From an uncultured Lactobacillus sp. (lineage in GTDB: Bacteria > Bacillota > Bacilli > Lactobacillales > Lactobacillaceae), in the NCBI GenBank assembly GCA_945281075.1, contig CALYQE010000001.1:1-31255 (forward strand): a DNA stretch of 31,255 nucleotides, in the 5' to 3' direction. The stretch's first letter is position 1; every line of letters begins with the position of its first letter. A program made the position numbers and the translations under genes. Below the pieces are notes generated by a model. The model saw only the letters and a list, made by a program, of their open reading frames with translations, made no database searches and had not been told where the DNA came from. This document shows positions 16,871-25,540 of the stretch, one piece after another.

Positions 16871-17464
16871 ATGAATAAAATTCACCGTTTAAGTATCAAA
16901 ATATTTTCTGCAGTGACATTATCTTTCGCCTTTGTTAGCTGTACCATCTCTTCTTCTCATCCGGGTTCACCGTTTATTCCTACACAGATCGCCTACGCTA
17001 AAAAGAAGACTGCACCTAGGCGCTGGAATAAACCCAAAGCTTTAGTCTATCTGCAGCTAGGTAAAGATGAAAACTTAATTGCTGCTACTAGTGATGCCAT
17101 TAGAGAATGGAATAAAACTAAAGCCTTTACTTTTATCATTACCAACAAAAAGAAAAAAGCGCAGATTGTCGTGGAGCTTTGGTACAGCACAGCAACCGAC
17201 TATACCGGCTACACTACTTGGTCCTATAACCTTAAAAACAATCGAATGCTGGCGGCAAAAATTTTTCTAAACCAATATTATTTAGAAAATTATACGGATC
17301 AACCAATGAGCTACGAGGATGGAGTCAAGGTTATTGAACATGAATTAGGCCATGCAATTGGTCTTAATCATCGAACAGACGTCCCGTCTATCATGGATCC
17401 AGAAAGCCAATATGCCATTCAGTCAGTCGACATTAAGACCGTTAAGAATATTTATCGTAAATAA
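16871..17464 (+). CDS. Secreted matrixin-type zinc metalloprotease (second copy)
   Basis: 197 aa, a paralogue of 15333-15971 with the same plan: signal peptide with core at 11-24 and likely cleavage after AYA at 43 (before KKKTAPRR), then VYLQLGKDENLIAATSDAIREWNKTKAFTF, and the zinc site HELGHAIGLNH (His157, Glu158, His161, Gly164, His167) with Met175 in PSIMDPE as the Met-turn. A Cys at 24 (FVSCT) loosely resembles a lipobox, but the AYA site is more convincing. The ribosome binding site is weak. It lacks the 15-residue segment that follows the signal in the first copy. The pair probably arose by local duplication. Substrate unknown. Confidence 0.85.
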   Translation: MNKIHRLSIKIFSAVTLSFAFVSCTISSSHPGSPFIPTQIAYAKKKTAPRRWNKPKALVYLQLGKDENLIAATSDAIREWNKTKAFTFIITNKKKKAQIVVELWYSTATDYTGYTTWSYNLKNNRMLAAKIFLNQYYLENYTDQPMSYEDGVKVIEHELGHAIGLNHRTDVPSIMDPESQYAIQSVDIKTVKNIYRK

Positions 17465-18487: not shown

Positions 18488-19198
18488 TTAGCCGCCAAAA
18501 TAAACCTTTTGGACTTCTGGATCGGCCAAGAGCTCCTTACCTGAACCGGTAAGCTGCACTTTACCCGTAGCCAGAACGTAGCCCCGATCGGCAATTGACA
18601 AGGCCTGCTTGGCATTCTGCTCGATTAATAAAATGGTCGTGCCTTTTTTATTCAGTTCCTTGATAATGCTAAAAATTTCCTGAATATACAGGGGCGATAA
18701 CCCCATCGAAGGCTCATCCAGTAAAAGCAGCTTGGGCTTGGCCATTAGCGCGCGCCCAATCGCTAACATTTGCTGCTCACCGCCAGACAAGGTTGCCGCA
18801 TCCTGATTTCGCCGCTTCTTCAAAATAGGAAAACGAGCAAAGATTTCCTGGTAAGTTTTGGCTGTTTCTGCATTATTTTTTTGCAAAAAGGCCCCCATCT
18901 GCAAGTTTTCCATGACGGTTAGCCCAGAAAAAATGTGTCGCCCCTCCGGAACTTGTGAAATCCCTTCCTGCACAATCTGCGGTGCTTTTTTGCGAGTCAA
19001 ATCTTCGTTGCGGTAAACAATTTTACCTTCTTTGGGCTTTAACAAGCCAGAAATTGTTTTAACAATCGTCGACTTGCCGGCACCATTAGCACCAATTAGG
19101 GTCACGATTTCACCTTCGTTAATCTCGAAGCTGACCCCTTTTACTGCCTGAATGACGCCATAATTAACAGATAAGTCCTGTACTTCTAGCATTGCCAT
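18488..19198 (-). CDS. livF: Branched-chain amino-acid ABC transporter ATPase LivF
   Basis: 236 aa. Walker A GANGAGKST at 36-44, signature LSGGEQQML at 136-144, Walker B LLLLDEPSMGLSP, H-loop LIEQNAKQAL. The SxxQVPEGRHIFSGLTVMENL segment is the LivF hallmark. It forms a heterodimer with LivG under the LivH/LivM channel and drives uptake of Leu, Ile and Val. The start ATG follows the livG stop with no gap, and the GGGAGGG within the end of livG serves as its ribosome binding site. It is the last gene of the operon, with a terminator 11-56 bp after the stop. Confidence 0.93.
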   Translation of the reverse strand: MAMLEVQDLSVNYGVIQAVKGVSFEINEGEIVTLIGANGAGKSTIVKTISGLLKPKEGKIVYRNEDLTRKKAPQIVQEGISQVPEGRHIFSGLTVMENLQMGAFLQKNNAETAKTYQEIFARFPILKKRRNQDAATLSGGEQQMLAIGRALMAKPKLLLLDEPSMGLSPLYIQEIFSIIKELNKKGTTILLIEQNAKQALSIADRGYVLATGKVQLTGSGKELLADPEVQKVYFGG

Positions 19199-19981
19199 CT
19201 AATCTTCACCCTCCCCTAAGTATGCTTCGATCACCTTCGGGTTTGATCTAATCTCATCCGGCGTACCCGTTGCCAGTAACTCACCTTGATCAAGCACATA
19301 AATTCGCTCCGCCAAGTTCATGACTAGCGACATATCGTGTTCAATCAATAAAACGGTAATTTGAAATTCTTTTTGCACGCGTTTAATTAAATTGGTTAAA
19401 TCGGTTGTTTCTTCAGGGTTCATGCCAGCTGCAGGTTCATCTAAGAATAAAATCTGGGGTTTAGTCGCTAAAGCACGCACAATTTCCAGACGGCGCTGAG
19501 TGCCGTAAGGCAAATTCTTGGCCAGTGTCTGTTCATAGTCGGTCAAATCAAAGATCTCAAGCAGCTTTTCAGCTGCAATTCTCATTTCTTTTTCCGTTTG
19601 ATAGTAACTTGGCAACCGCAAAATTGTGGTCAAAAAGCCCTCGCGATATTCATTAGTCATCGCGGTCAAAACATTATCCATGACCGTCAGGTCTTTGAAT
19701 AAACGGATATTTTGGAAAGTCCGCGATAAACCTAAGTCCGCAATTTGCACAGCACTTTTATGCGTTAAATCATATGTTTGCTGGTCGACTTGTAAATCAA
19801 TTTTGCCGCTGGTGACCTGAACCATCCCGGTTAAAAGATTAAATAAAGTCGTTTTGCCGGCACCGTTAGGACCAATCAGAGCAACCAGCTCATGCTGATC
19901 TAAGTAGAGTGACACGTCATTGACCGCCGTTAAGCCGCCAAACTTGCGCACTACATGCTCAACTTGCAATAAATGCTCCAT
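19199..19981 (-). CDS. livG: Branched-chain amino-acid ABC transporter ATPase LivG
   Basis: 260 aa. Walker A GPNGAGKTT at 37-45; the LivG-type signature LPYGTQRRLEIVRAL replaces the canonical LSGGQ; Walker B ILFLDEPAAGMNP, H-loop LIEHDMSLVM; LGLSRTFQNIRLFKDLTVMDNV is also typical of LivG. The C-terminal LYxGTPDEIRSNPKVIEAYLGE ending is the family's usual one. It pairs with LivF to energise the transporter. It starts 3 bp after livM, with AAGGGG upstream. Membrane-associated in the cytoplasm. No missing residues. Confidence 0.93.
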   Translation of the reverse strand: MEHLLQVEHVVRKFGGLTAVNDVSLYLDQHELVALIGPNGAGKTTLFNLLTGMVQVTSGKIDLQVDQQTYDLTHKSAVQIADLGLSRTFQNIRLFKDLTVMDNVLTAMTNEYREGFLTTILRLPSYYQTEKEMRIAAEKLLEIFDLTDYEQTLAKNLPYGTQRRLEIVRALATKPQILFLDEPAAGMNPEETTDLTNLIKRVQKEFQITVLLIEHDMSLVMNLAERIYVLDQGELLATGTPDEIRSNPKVIEAYLGEGED

Positions 19982-19984
19982 GCC

Positions 19985-20941
19985 TTAGCCCCTTTCTTTC
20001 TTACTAAAATGATTGGTAATTCTTTTTAGGGAGAATTCCCAATTGCCCAAAAGACCTGACGGCTTAAACAGCATAATCAAGATTAACGCAATTGCGTATA
20101 TTACCATTCGCAATGAACCAAAGTTCTGCAAAACCGTATCCAAGATCCCTAAAACGGTCGCTGCGAGAAATGTTCCTGTCATGCTGCCAACGCCGCCAAG
20201 AACAACAATTACCAGAATTGAGATTGACTCCATAATGCCAAAATTCGAAGGAGAAATAGTCTGAATGTATGAAGCACTCAAACTGCCGGCAATGGCTGCG
20301 GTAGCGCCACCGATCACAAAAGCTGCTAATTTCCACTTAGTCGTGTTAATGCCCATTGCTTCGGCGGCAATTTCGTCTTCACGCACAGCCTTAATTGCAC
20401 GTCCATCACGTGAACGAATCAAGTTCAAGATCACAATCGTCGTCAGACAAACCAAAATATAAACGGTCGGCCATGAGCAAAGCTGCGGAATGTTGAACAT
20501 TCCTGCTGATCCACCGGTGATTTTCAAATTATTAATGACATTACGGATAATTTCCGCTGCGCCTAAGGTGGCAATAGCAAAATAATCGCCCTTTAGCCGA
20601 ATAAATGTTGCTGTACCAATAATCGTAGCTAATAAAATCGCGATCGCCATGCCCACCAAGACTGACACGATAAAACCAAGTTCGCTGCTCATGTGTTGGG
20701 TGATGATTGCCGTTGCATATGCACCAATTGCCATAAAGCCAGCATGCCCTAACGAAAACTGCCCGCTAAATCCAATAATTAAATTCAGTCCACTGGCCAA
20801 GATGATATTGATCCCGATGGTGACCAACATGTTTTCGATAAAATCGTCAATTACCCCGATCATGATCAAAGTATTAATGAGGTAAAAACCGCCAACCATC
20901 AAGACGAGCCAAGACAAAATGTATTTCCAATTTGCTTTCAT
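19985..20941 (-). CDS. livM: Branched-chain amino-acid ABC transporter permease LivM
   Basis: 318 aa, hydrophobic throughout, with about eight to ten membrane segments starting at WKYILSWLVLMVGGFYLINTLIM. The diagnostic LSLGHAGFMAIGAYATA block appears as FSLGHAGFMAIGAYATAI, and the EAA-like loop with ATWKAxAFxIGGxxAxxAGSLxAxY appears as TTKWKLAAFVIGGATAAIAGSL. It forms the membrane channel together with LivH. AGGTGG precedes the ATG. It begins 8 bp after livH and is codirectional and probably cotranscribed with livJHGF. Confidence 0.93.
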   Translation of the reverse strand: MKANWKYILSWLVLMVGGFYLINTLIMIGVIDDFIENMLVTIGINIILASGLNLIIGFSGQFSLGHAGFMAIGAYATAIITQHMSSELGFIVSVLVGMAIAILLATIIGTATFIRLKGDYFAIATLGAAEIIRNVINNLKITGGSAGMFNIPQLCSWPTVYILVCLTTIVILNLIRSRDGRAIKAVREDEIAAEAMGINTTKWKLAAFVIGGATAAIAGSLSASYIQTISPSNFGIMESISILVIVVLGGVGSMTGTFLAATVLGILDTVLQNFGSLRMVIYAIALILIMLFKPSGLLGNWEFSLKRITNHFSKKERG

Positions 20942-20949
20942 TTTGCCAC

Positions 20950-21828
20950 CTAAACCTTTTCCTTAGCATTTTTGCCAAAAATACCAGCTGGTAAGAAGAG
21001 CAAAATAACAATTAACACGAAGTAGACAACCGCATCTTTGTATGACGACAAGCCAATCGATTGGAAAAAGGTTTCCAAAAAGCCGATTAAAAAGCCACCA
21101 AGCGATGCCCCTGGAACAGAGCCAATACCACCTAAAACTGCGGCAACAAAGGCTTTAATTCCCGGTGTCATCCCCATCAACGGGTCAATTTGGTTATAGT
21201 ACATGCCGATCAAAACACCGGCTGCACCCGCCAAGGCCGATCCTAGAGCAAAGGTAAAGGAAATAGTATGGTTAACATTAACGCCGACTAATTCAGCCGC
21301 ATCGGGATCAACGGAAACCGCCCGCATCGCACGCCCCATCTTCGTCTTTTTGATAATCAGCTGCAACAAAATCATTAAGATCAAGGCTGTGGCTAAAATT
21401 AATACTTGAATATTTGAAATAATAATATCGCCAATGTGATAGTTAACTTGCTCAATAATCTGCGGAAAACTACGTGCATTTGAGCCTACTAAATATGACA
21501 TCCCGTTTTCCAGTAAAAACGAAACACCAATAGCCGTAATTAAGACAGCGATCCGTGGTGATTTACGTAAAGGCCGGTAGGCAAAATACTCAATTACCAC
21601 GCCAGCAATCGCACTGACAATCATTGCCGACAATAAAGCCGTAATAAAATTAAAATGCCATAAGCTAATTGCATAATATGCAAAAAATGCACCAAGCATA
21701 TAAATGTCGCCGTGAGCAAAATTAATTAACTTAATAATGCCATAAACCATGCTGTAGCCTAGCGCCAATAAGGCGTAGATCGAGCCTAGCGACAACGCAT
21801 TAATGATTTGCTGTAAGACTATTTGCAA
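20950..21828 (-). CDS. livH: Branched-chain amino-acid ABC transporter permease LivH
   Basis: 292 aa, membrane protein with about eight hydrophobic segments. NALSLGSIYALLALGYSMVYGIIKLINFAHGDIYMLGAF is the LivH hallmark (LGYTMVYG..INFAHG), and GAALGGFLIGFLE-type sequence near the end (PGASLGGFLIGFLETFFQ) confirms it. It starts with TTG at 21828, a choice supported by AAAGGAGCG at the right distance and the lack of a nearby ATG. It lies 48 bp after livJ. With LivM it forms the transmembrane pore for Leu/Ile/Val. Confidence 0.93.
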   Translation of the reverse strand: MQIVLQQIINALSLGSIYALLALGYSMVYGIIKLINFAHGDIYMLGAFFAYYAISLWHFNFITALLSAMIVSAIAGVVIEYFAYRPLRKSPRIAVLITAIGVSFLLENGMSYLVGSNARSFPQIIEQVNYHIGDIIISNIQVLILATALILMILLQLIIKKTKMGRAMRAVSVDPDAAELVGVNVNHTISFTFALGSALAGAAGVLIGMYYNQIDPLMGMTPGIKAFVAAVLGGIGSVPGASLGGFLIGFLETFFQSIGLSSYKDAVVYFVLIVILLFLPAGIFGKNAKEKV

Positions 21829-21876: not shown

Positions 21877-23076
21877 CTATTCAACCTTAAAGGAATTACT
21901 AATTTTGCCATTGGTAATCTCCTCAATCACAATCGCTTCGTCTGGGTTGTGGTGTTTGTCGATTGTCATTTCACCAGTTACGCCTTTAAAGCCAGTTAAC
22001 TTAGCTAAACCAGCGGCAATCTTAGTTGAATCATCGGATTTTTCGTCTTCAATTGCTTGCTTAACCATATAAACGGAATCATAAGCTAATGCGGCAAAGG
22101 CAGGTGCGTCTGCATGATAACGTTCTTTGAATGATTTCAAAAATTTAGCAGAAAATGTTTCTTTGGCAGCAACGCGAGTTGAAAACGGTGTGGTATAAAA
22201 GATTTTAGTTGCATTGTTGGCACCAGCAATCTGGACTAATTTTGAGTCACACATACCGTCGCCGCCAACGATTGGAGCCTTAATCCCCATTTGACGGGCT
22301 TGCTTGATGATTAAACCAATTTCTGTGTAGTACCCTGGCACATATATTACGTCGGCATTTTTAGATTTAAACGAAGTTAGAACTGCATTAAAGTCCTTAT
22401 CACCAGCCGAATAGGTTTGGCTATCAACAATTTTGCCTTTGAAAGTCTTCTTAAACGCCTTAGCTAAGCCTGTACCATAATCACTAGAGTTGTCAGCATA
22501 AATTGCTACCCGCTTTGCCTTCAGCTTGTCCATGACAAACTTGGCTGCACTTTCACCCTGAATATTGTTTTGGAAACATGCACGGAAAACGTATTTCTGC
22601 ACCTTGCCGTCTTTTTGCAAAGTGAAGTTTGGATCAGTTGCCGAAGGGCTAACGAAAGGTACAGCTGCCTTGGTAATGTTTGGAATTTGTGCTGTTCCCG
22701 CATTAGTAGTAGCAGGCCCCACGATTGCCGCTACCTTGTCCTTGGTTGCCAATTGTGCTGCAACAGATGCTGAAGTCGCTGTCGAAGACTTATTATCGCG
22801 GATAATCAGCTTAATCTTCTTTTTATGACCATTGACATCAATTCCGCCAGCCTTGTTGATCTCATCTGCAGCCAACTGGATACCTTGCTTTTCAGCATTA
22901 CCGTAACCGGCTACCGCACCTGAAAGCTCCAGATTAACCCCAATTTTGACGATATTCTTGTCCTGCTTGGTACCGGCATTATTGCCGCCATTTTTGGCCA
23001 CTGAACAGCCCGCCAGCATCAGCGCCGCGGCGCCCGCTGTAAAAATATTCACTACCTTTTTTGTGATTTTCATCAT
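21877..23076 (-). CDS. livJ: Branched-chain amino-acid-binding lipoprotein LivJ/LivK
   Basis: 399 aa. The signal peptide ends in a lipobox LMLAGC with the lipidated Cys at residue 24, so the protein is anchored to the outer face of the membrane. A Ser/Asn/Gly-rich linker follows. The binding fold is of the periplasmic type I group: KIGVNLELSGAVAGYGNAEKQGIQLAADEINKAGG, then VAAIVGPATTNAGTAQIPNI, SPSATDPNF and YADNSSDYGTGLAKAFKKTF. It captures branched-chain amino acids and hands them to LivHM. ATG at 23076 is followed by a second ATG at 23073; AAGGAG favours the second, a trivial difference. It is the first gene of the operon, downstream of the attenuator. Confidence 0.92.
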   Translation of the reverse strand: MMKITKKVVNIFTAGAAALMLAGCSVAKNGGNNAGTKQDKNIVKIGVNLELSGAVAGYGNAEKQGIQLAADEINKAGGIDVNGHKKKIKLIIRDNKSSTATSASVAAQLATKDKVAAIVGPATTNAGTAQIPNITKAAVPFVSPSATDPNFTLQKDGKVQKYVFRACFQNNIQGESAAKFVMDKLKAKRVAIYADNSSDYGTGLAKAFKKTFKGKIVDSQTYSAGDKDFNAVLTSFKSKNADVIYVPGYYTEIGLIIKQARQMGIKAPIVGGDGMCDSKLVQIAGANNATKIFYTTPFSTRVAAKETFSAKFLKSFKERYHADAPAFAALAYDSVYMVKQAIEDEKSDDSTKIAAGLAKLTGFKGVTGEMTIDKHHNPDEAIVIEEITNGKISNSFKVE

Positions 23077-23100
23077 TTTCTCCTTTGTTTTTCAATCAAA

Positions 23101-23128
23101 AACCTCATTCAACTTAATGAATGAGGTT
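23101..23128 (-). terminator. Intrinsic terminator (attenuator) in the liv leader
   Basis: On the minus strand AACCTCATTC (23119-23128), loop ATTAAGTT, GAATGAGGTT (23101-23110), then TTTTGATTG. A ten-base perfect stem with a run of five T, placed 25 bp before livJ and inside the operon's own leader. Confidence 0.85.
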
Positions 23129-23216
23129 TAAGTTAATCAAGCCCCATTCATCAAGACGTAAACAAGGGCTTAACTTGTGCAAATCACCATCAGCAATTTG
23201 TTTTTGCTAAGTCCTT
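23101..23216 (-). promoter_or_regulatory. Mutually exclusive RNA structures of a probable ribosome-mediated attenuator
   Basis: In transcript order: A AAGGACTTAG (23216-23207, end of the leader ORF), B AAGTTAAGCCCTT (23176-23164), C GAATGGGGCTTGATTAACTT (23149-23130), D AACCTCATTC (23128-23119), E GAATGAGGTT (23110-23101). A pairs with B (one A-C mismatch, one G-U). B pairs with C (GGGCTT and AACTT with an internal bulge). C pairs with D (GAATGGGG against CCTCATTC, one G-U). D pairs with E to form the terminator. A ribosome reaching the stop codon would cover A, leaving B:C and D:E (off). A ribosome stalled on the Ile/Leu codons would leave A:B and C:D (on). This is read from the sequence and not tested. 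Confidence 0.7.
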
Positions 23217-23296
23217 CTCGACAACAAGGCAATAATAATTTTTTGAGTATTGGTCATTTTAACTTGCGCTTTTCGGCAACCATATTTAGTTTTCAT
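23207..23296 (-). CDS. 29-aa leader peptide with Ile-Ile-Ile-Ala-Leu-Leu
   Basis: ATG at 23296 with GGGAGG eight bases upstream, 29 codons, TAG at 23207. The peptide is MKTKYGCRKAQVKMTNTQ then KIIIALLSRRT. Codons 20-22 are ATT ATT ATT and codons 24-25 are TTG TTG, so five of six consecutive codons call for branched-chain amino acids, directly before a branched-chain transporter operon. The strong ribosome binding site, consensus promoter and downstream attenuator hairpins argue that it is translated as a sensor of charged tRNA. The product itself is probably non-functional. It is short, so random occurrence cannot be excluded on the peptide alone; the combination makes it convincing. Confidence 0.78.
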   Translation of the reverse strand: MKTKYGCRKAQVKMTNTQKIIIALLSRRT

Positions 23297-23332
23297 TAAA
23301 ATGACCTCCCAAAATTTAATTTAATACTTAGA

Positions 23333-23361
23333 ATTATAAGCATCTGCTTTTTAAGTGTCAA
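23333..23361 (-). promoter_or_regulatory. Consensus promoter of the liv operon
   Basis: On the minus strand TTGACA (23356-23361), exactly 17 bp, TATAAT (23333-23338). Both boxes are perfect. The start, near 23326, gives a 30-nt lead-in to the leader ORF and about 250 nt to livJ. A perfect promoter with downstream attenuation is a logical pairing. Confidence 0.9.
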
Positions 23362-24033: not shown

Positions 24034-24993
24034 TTAATAGCCTCTTGTTAAGCACTCTTGAATTAGATCAAAAGTTTCAGAGAATCCAACATACTCCGAA
24101 AAATTTTCTTTTAGCATATTTAAAGCCTGAGCGGTAAACTTAGTTGCCAAATTTTGAGCATATTCAATTCCTCCCAAATCATTAACTAATTTATCAATTT
24201 GGGCTAGTTCAGGTAATGATAATTTTTTCCCAATCTTAACTAAGTCTTTAAGCTTACCAGTTTTATCTTTTCTTAACGCAAAAATTAGCGGACCAGTATA
24301 AACTCCATTCACGACATCCAGTAAAACCGGCTTTTTCAGTTCTGCTTCTGTAGCTGTAAAGTCCAAAATGTCATCACGCAATTGAAAAGCTTGACCAAAT
24401 AGTAGCCCTACTTGCTGTGCCTTTTTGGCTAGCGATCTACTAAGACCGCCTTCGAGTGCACCAATATAACAGGCATAACCAAAAAGACTAGCAGTTTTTC
24501 CACGTATTTGTTCAAGATATTCTTTTTCAGAAATCATCGTGTTGTATTCGTTACCATACTGCATCGTTTCACCAGCTAGAATTGTCTGCATAGTGTTTCC
24601 ATTAATTCGCAAATCAGTTATACGCGAAGTGTTTTCACTTAAAAGTTGTAAAGAAAGTGCAAACAAATAATCTCCTGAATATAACGCAATAGTTTTACCG
24701 AACTCAGCTTGAACTGACTTTCTTCCTCGTCTAGTAGCAGAATTGTCGATGATATCATCATGAATTAGGGTAGCATTGTGAAGGATTTCTACAGAACTAG
24801 CGATGTTATAAATTCTTTGCTGATTTTGTTTATTCCCCATTTCTCCAAAAAGAATTACAAAACTAGGACGCAACTGCTTTCCGGGCGTAGAAAAGGCGTA
24901 TTTAAGGGCTTTACCCAAATCACCTTTGGGTAGAGTTACGTTTTGATGAATTATTTTCTGAACTTTTATTAATTGATTATCTAGCCTTGTCAT
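24034..24993 (-). CDS. dmkB: Polyprenyl diphosphate synthase of the EET locus (DmkB)
   Basis: 319 aa from ATG 24993, with AAGGAA upstream; a TTG 18 bases earlier lies within the end of eetB and is unlikely. It is a trans-isoprenyl diphosphate synthase: first Asp-rich motif LIHDDIIDNSATRRGR (Asp79, 80, 83) and second QLRDDILDF (Asp207, 208, 211), with GKQLRPSFV before and GKTASLFGYACYIGAL between. It makes the C-chain for a demethylmenaquinone. In Listeria the homologue of this position is DmkB, a dedicated copy for the EET quinone. Stop and start of eetB and dmkB are one base apart (TAAAATG), indicating coupled translation. It is the last gene of the left arm. Chain length cannot be told reliably. 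Confidence 0.88.
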   Translation of the reverse strand: MTRLDNQLIKVQKIIHQNVTLPKGDLGKALKYAFSTPGKQLRPSFVILFGEMGNKQNQQRIYNIASSVEILHNATLIHDDIIDNSATRRGRKSVQAEFGKTIALYSGDYLFALSLQLLSENTSRITDLRINGNTMQTILAGETMQYGNEYNTMISEKEYLEQIRGKTASLFGYACYIGALEGGLSRSLAKKAQQVGLLFGQAFQLRDDILDFTATEAELKKPVLLDVVNGVYTGPLIFALRKDKTGKLKDLVKIGKKLSLPELAQIDKLVNDLGGIEYAQNLATKFTAQALNMLKENFSEYVGFSETFDLIQECLTRGY

Positions 24994-24994
24994 T

Positions 24995-25540
24995 TTAATT
25001 TCCTTTGTCAACCACGGTTTTAATAAAACTGAATGCCCCTGCGTAATGCAAAAGGTAATTACTAATTAGACCAATCAGCAAACCTGATAAAATTCCAAAA
25101 ATCGTTAACAGCGGTAAATATAAAAAGAGATATTTGCTTTGTGCAAGCATCGCCGCTATTAGCAATTGTCCACAATTGTGGCTAACGCCCCCAATAATTG
25201 ACACACCGATTAAGCTGATAAATCTTGGGACAAGTGCTATAAAAAGTTTCATAATAAGCAAGCTTAAAAACGAACCGGCTGCTGCGTATAAAAACGTTCC
25301 CGTTCCCCCAGTCATTAATGCTGTTAAAACTATCCTTAAGAAGGTTAATAAAAAACAGTCTTTAAAAGGTAAAATCATTAAGGAAATCAGCGTAATTATA
25401 TTGGTTAATCCCAATCTTGCTCCTGGAGCAAAGAAAAAGGGGGATGGGAGCATTTGCTCAACAATACTAAGGATAATTCCCTGAGAACATAAAATTCCCG
25501 TAAAGACATAATTGCTTAAATAGTTACTTGTTTTATTCAT
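24995..25540 (-). CDS. eetB: Gx transporter family membrane protein (EetB-like)
   Basis: 181 aa, five to six membrane segments beginning YVFTGILCSQGIILSIVEQMLPSPFFFAPGARLGLTNIITLISLMIL. The sequence LGLTNIITL and the conserved GxxxxxG-rich segments (GTGTFLYAAAGSFLSLLIM, GGVSHNCGQLLIAAML) fit the family often named heptaprenyl diphosphate synthase component I or Gx transporter, which includes EetB of the Listeria EET locus. The first name is misleading, since this is an integral membrane protein with no prenyl-synthase motif. It has a weak ribosome binding site, 15 bp after eetA, so its translation may depend on that of eetA. The biochemical role of EetB is not settled. Confidence 0.82.
   Translation of the reverse strand: MNKTSNYLSNYVFTGILCSQGIILSIVEQMLPSPFFFAPGARLGLTNIITLISLMILPFKDCFLLTFLRIVLTALMTGGTGTFLYAAAGSFLSLLIMKLFIALVPRFISLIGVSIIGGVSHNCGQLLIAAMLAQSKYLFLYLPLLTIFGILSGLLIGLISNYLLHYAGAFSFIKTVVDKGN

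What the first reader, a model, noticed from the sequence alone, without database searches (positions are those of the whole stretch)
23101..23361. Ribosome-mediated attenuator of the liv operon: leader peptide with III-A-LL and five-segment hairpin switch
A perfect promoter is followed by a well-initiated 29-codon ORF with three Ile and two Leu codons in six, then segments that pair A:B, B:C, C:D and D:E, where D:E is a terminator just before livJ. The logic works: a ribosome at the stop codon hides A and yields B:C plus terminator; a ribosome stalled on Ile/Leu codons frees A:B, so C:D forms and the terminator does not. I found no T-box. Firmicutes usually regulate such genes by T-box or CodY, so a peptide attenuator on a branched-chain transporter in a lactobacillus is notable and may not be described.
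Basis: partly seen in the sequence, partly recalled or inferred. Interest (0 to 1): 0.85.

Follow-up and report, generated by a model that had tools for sequence, protein, structure and literature searches.

The report
Leucine-sensing RNA switch before liv genes
In front of the genes for a branched-chain amino acid importer, lactobacilli carry a short peptide gene whose leucine codons appear both to sense leucine shortage and to serve as one arm of the RNA switch that turns the importer on; such switches are known for biosynthesis genes, but I found no account of this one.

The parts
23333..23361 (-). sigma-70 type promoter, TTGACA-17-TATAAT
   Evidence: 12 of 12 to consensus; similar boxes precede many relatives' leaders in the printed sequences (by eye)
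23305..23310 (-). Shine-Dalgarno of the leader ORF (GGGAGG)
23207..23296 (-). leader peptide ORF, 29 codons, MKTKYGCRKAQVKMTNTQKIIIALLSRRT
   Evidence: a related ORF stands before livJ at 31 of 31 close places of the genus
23296..23306 (-). 5' arm of a hairpin covering the leader Shine-Dalgarno and start codon
   Evidence: 12-bp helix in the fold; SD:ORF pairing beats the median synonymous recoding in 62 of 68 leaders
23252..23262 (-). 3' arm of that hairpin, inside the leader ORF
23231..23239 (-). three Ile codons (ATT), present in few relatives
23222..23230 (-). conserved Ala-Leu-Leu control codons (GCC TTG TTG)
   Evidence: where Ala precedes the Leu run its codon is GCC in 57 of 57; the Leu run stays although its codons vary
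23216..23230 (-). [not shown]
23206..23215 (-). segment A (AGGACUUAGC), overlaps the leader stop codon, pairs with B
23180..23200 (-). small hairpin between A and B
   Evidence: hairpin-like letters recur there in relatives (by eye)
23165..23174 (-). segment B (GUUAAGCCCU), pairs with A or with C
23156..23165 (-). conserved B-C loop (UUGUUUACGU here, mostly UUGUUUGCGU), possible RNA polymerase pause signal
   Evidence: conservation; function is inference
23136..23155 (-). segment C (CUUGAUGAAUGGGGCUUGAU), pairs with Z, B or D
23113..23126 (-). segment D (CCUCAUUCAUUAAG), pairs with C or E
23098..23110 (-). segment E (GAAUGAGG) and U-run, terminator with D
21877..23076 (-). livJ, branched-chain amino acid binding lipoprotein
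   Evidence: Peripla_BP_6, 7.2e-56
20950..21828 (-). livH permease
   Evidence: BPD_transp_2; gene name by order
19985..20941 (-). livM permease
   Evidence: BPD_transp_2; gene name by order
19199..19981 (-). livG ATPase
   Evidence: ABC_tran and BCA_ABC_TP_C
18488..19198 (-). livF ATPase
   Evidence: ABC_tran; gene name by order

Best explanation
[not shown]
Confidence: 0.8

Rival explanations
1. The first reader's five-segment attenuator without the codon arm: A:B forms whenever A is not covered, so lack of translation gives read-through.
For: Before E is out, the no-ribosome fold shows C:D (9 or more expected pairs) in 28 of 32 leaders, with A:B; A:B is kept in 88.9% of cells; 7 of 33 full folds favour C:D.
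Confidence: 0.1
2. The leader senses general slowing of translation, or Arg/Thr/Ser supply, rather than leucine.
For: RT before the stop is common in the genus.
Against: The AGGAC letters are kept as RNA outside the reading frame as well (L060 and the leuA type have the stop before them), so RT follows from segment A; Leu is kept with changing codons; targets are liv and leuA.
Confidence: 0.06
3. Control is by another regulator (T-box, CodY or an unknown riboswitch) and the ORF is incidental or makes a functional small protein.
For: Many Firmicutes BCAA genes use T-box or CodY; 14 of 14 livJ loci of other families carry CodY-like boxes of 13-15 of 15 letters (no shuffle control).
Against: No Rfam hit; no CodY in 49 genomes of the genus, own included, against 25 of 31 outside (some genomes are incomplete); the start of the peptide is poorly conserved while its end and the RNA arms are kept.
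Confidence: 0.04

Closest known systems
Rli60, leader of ilvD-leu in Listeria monocytogenes (PMC5864092, passages read)
   Same: BCAA-codon leader peptide, terminator and antiterminator, lower read-through when leader translation is blocked.
   Different: Controls biosynthesis, lies under CodY, 13-codon peptide; no codon arm is described in the passages I saw.
S. aureus ilvD attenuator (PMC5794164, passages read)
   Same: Peptide with three Ile then two Leu codons, as in the window; GAAUGG and UUGUUU motifs are named there and also occur in the window's C and B-C loop.
   Different: Biosynthesis operon; the antiterminator pairing described is with the U-tail; homology not tested.
LEU element of Actinobacteria before leuA (PMC1262725, passages read)
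   Same: A run of Leu codons pairs with a control segment.
   Different: There the partner is the leuA Shine-Dalgarno, with a pseudoknot, and its authors think classical attenuation unlikely; here the partner is the antiterminator arm of a transcription terminator.
leu/ilv attenuators of enteric bacteria (review PMC6123439, passages; details recalled)
   Same: Stall on control codons, antiterminator against terminator, termination without translation (recalled).
   Different: Those named in the review passages precede biosynthesis operons; sequence relation not tested.

Membership tests
ribosome-mediated (leader peptide) transcription attenuator | short ORF with a start, a ribosome-binding site and a run of control codons for the product's amino acid | tested here: met
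   (translation itself not tested)
ribosome-mediated (leader peptide) transcription attenuator | mutually exclusive antiterminator and intrinsic terminator, conserved by covariation | tested here: met
ribosome-mediated (leader peptide) transcription attenuator | helix overlapping the ORF end that a ribosome would block, conserved by covariation | tested here: inconclusive
   A:B present in 88.9% of cells but no covariation beyond shuffles
ribosome-mediated (leader peptide) transcription attenuator | read-through rises on starvation for the coded amino acid and depends on leader translation | not testable with these tools
   needs experiment
Rli60-like BCAA leaders of Bacilli | sequence and structure similarity found by a covariance model | tested here: inconclusive
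   R2: 2 leaders before IlvD genes (Pfam) among 4 non-own hits in 398 genomes, E 1.4e-4 and 6.7e-4; R1 found none of this type
T-box | match to Rfam RF00230 in the leader | tested here: not met
   no match in the window; 10 matches elsewhere in the genome
CodY regulon | codY gene in the genome | tested here: not met
   0 of 49 in the genus including the own genome, which is only 76% complete
actinobacterial LEU element | Leu codon run pairs with the Shine-Dalgarno of the downstream gene | tested here: not met
   in the window fold the codons pair with C

The most novel reading that the evidence does not exclude
The leucine codons are at once the sensor and a structural arm of the switch: they clamp the antiterminator strand, so that only a ribosome stalled there both frees that strand and leaves A:B intact. 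This self-clamping, default-off leader defines a leucine regulon (liv import, leuA, at least one oligopeptide-binding protein) across Lactobacillaceae, and in Lactobacillus, where CodY and IlvD were not found, it has taken over control of branched-chain amino acid supply.
Probability: 0.55. Interest if true: 0.72.

Novelty: new variant of a known kind. Interest (0 to 1): 0.6.

Why it matters
It would give Lactobacillaceae, including bee-gut lactobacilli that probably cannot make branched-chain amino acids, a conserved leucine sensor on import, where T-box or CodY would be expected. It makes a sharp claim testable: control codons can be chosen for base pairing as well as for the amino acid, which would explain why the Ala codon before the Leu run is GCC in 57 of 57 leaders and why the Leu codons and the opposite arm change together.

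Tried and rejected
Rejected: T-box or other Rfam family. CodY control. Ile as main signal. Weak model hits outside the family: 8 of 8 non-own R1 hits in 398 genomes of the class were terminators without such a leader, so E of 0.001-0.01 counts as chance unless an ORF of this type is there; one hit inside the family, L127, was also chance, and two of four non-own R2 hits (L144, L151) had no such leader. Plasmid DNA search gave no match.

Papers: searches listed no paper that I recognised as describing this leader; the library holds open-licence papers only. Seen: passages of PMC2965389, PMC6123439, PMC5794164, PMC1262725, PMC5864092, PMC2494555, PMC9413887; all others as listings only. PMC2965389 reports a histidine leader peptide for hisS paralogues in bacilli, so leader peptides in Firmicutes are not new as such.

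Errors of mine on the way: whole-genome loci are not oriented, so one search printed the wrong strand for minus matches and 18 missed their leaders. One search crashed part-way (redone; its codon counts were printed before the crash). mis-placed the Leu run or the arm in some rows (redone in 63; its swap table is superseded by 92). L048 was sliced wrongly in 24 and its leader was not examined. In one search my segment finder failed on several rows; alignment columns were used instead (33, 41). One search chose a wrong Leu run for L044. In 56 and 83 my strict ribosome-binding-site filter missed leaders (L102, L156, L157, L159, L161, L167); they were read with a looser scan in 95, as were nine model hits not fetched before (93).

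Dropped rows: L102, L127, L139 from the 68-leader set; redundancy filter 84 to 68. L059 and L060 are not in alignment A2 used for covariation. livJ fragments G387, G470, G343 and the copy of G107 cut by its contig are not in the 80 genomes.

Full report
What is there. The window lies in a Lactobacillus genome; the close named relatives found are L. apis, L. helsingborgensis and L. bombicola, which I know as bee-gut species (recalled). On the minus strand livJ, livH, livM, livG and livF run from 23076 to 18488. Before them stand a perfect promoter, a leader ORF with a good Shine-Dalgarno and segments A to E; the U-run ends 21 bases before the livJ start. The leader folds much better than shuffled sequence.

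Conservation in the genus. livJ of 70% identity or more occurs at 31 places in the 75 genomes of the genus searched, and all 31 have the leader. Of five remoter copies (53-56%), four carry a different leader and the fifth, L048, was not examined. Peptides vary at the start and agree at the end: A-L-L-(L)-x-x-R-T, with exceptions such as L011 (VLII) and L068. An Ile triplet beside the Leu codons is in 4 of 33 leaders (the 31 plus L059, Secundilactobacillus paracollinoides, and L060, Lacticaseibacillus thailandensis). livJ loci of other families (L017 to L030) did not show it (by eye); all 14 have a CodY-like box of 13-15 of 15 letters, the Lactobacillaceae loci 9-13, a count without shuffle control. 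CodY was found in 0 of 49 genomes of the genus and 25 of 31 others.

Covariation. On 19 leaders C:D has four pairs with changes on both sides (shuffles reach this in 51 of 500) and a covariation score above all 500 shuffles; B:C with D:E has three such pairs (2 of 500) and also a score above all 500. Because D serves both C and E, a change there must be matched twice; L014 and L068 seem to do so with a shift in C (by eye). A:B is kept in 88.9% of cells but does not co-vary beyond shuffles.

The leader's own start. The Shine-Dalgarno pairs inside the ORF in the window (12 bp). Over 68 leaders this pairing is better than the median synonymous recoding in 62 (median fraction 0.048). I read it as a brake on late ribosome loading; this is inference.

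What is known. Ribosome-mediated attenuators for BCAA biosynthesis have experimental support in Listeria (Rli60) and S. aureus and are predicted in L. lactis, Corynebacterium and streptococci. In Listeria, mutants of the leader's ribosome-binding site or start codon lower read-through, as the codon arm predicts for this leader and the five-segment scheme does not. A broader model (R2) finds two similar leaders before IlvD genes outside the family, so common descent is possible. The actinobacterial LEU element is the nearest precedent that I saw for Leu codons as a pairing arm. I found no paper on this leader (searches listed under Tried and rejected).

Biology. IlvD was found in 0 of 75 genomes of the genus, with 14 of 14 controls positive. 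Such cells probably must import branched-chain amino acids, so control of the importer by leucine supply makes sense. Verdict: real, very probably functional, and a new variant of a known kind; interest moderate to high because of the codon arm and the family-wide leucine regulon.

Noticed in passing
L101 (G015:C1:1526582-1526724, minus): A near copy of the livJ leader (E 7.6e-26) stands before a family-5 solute-binding protein gene, so peptide uptake may share the leucine signal.
   Followed up: partly
L014/L068 (G034:C1:579713-582432): Two livJ genes in tandem, each with its own leader and terminator, so the second attenuator would sit inside the operon.
   Followed up: partly
L164 (G163:C17, upstream of livJ): Leader peptide ends ARLIIIKDSGT: an apparent switch of the control codons from Leu to Ile.
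   Followed up: no
L016, L046, L047, L049 (genus members with livJ of 53-55% identity): A second leader type (VITLLQVM and the like) with unrelated sequence, GAGCUC repeats and a similar chain of helices before livJ; the control codons again pair downstream in three of four folds.
   Followed up: partly
window 23156-23165 and the same loop in relatives: UUGUUUGCGU in the B-C loop is strongly conserved; I noticed no pairing partner for it, and a pause signal is one guess.
   Followed up: no
window 16871-17464, plus strand: Small matrixin-like metallopeptidase (PF00413, 1e-8) in a Lactobacillus.
   Followed up: no
window 24034-25011, minus strand: Polyprenyl synthetase (PF00348) upstream of the liv region.
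   Followed up: no
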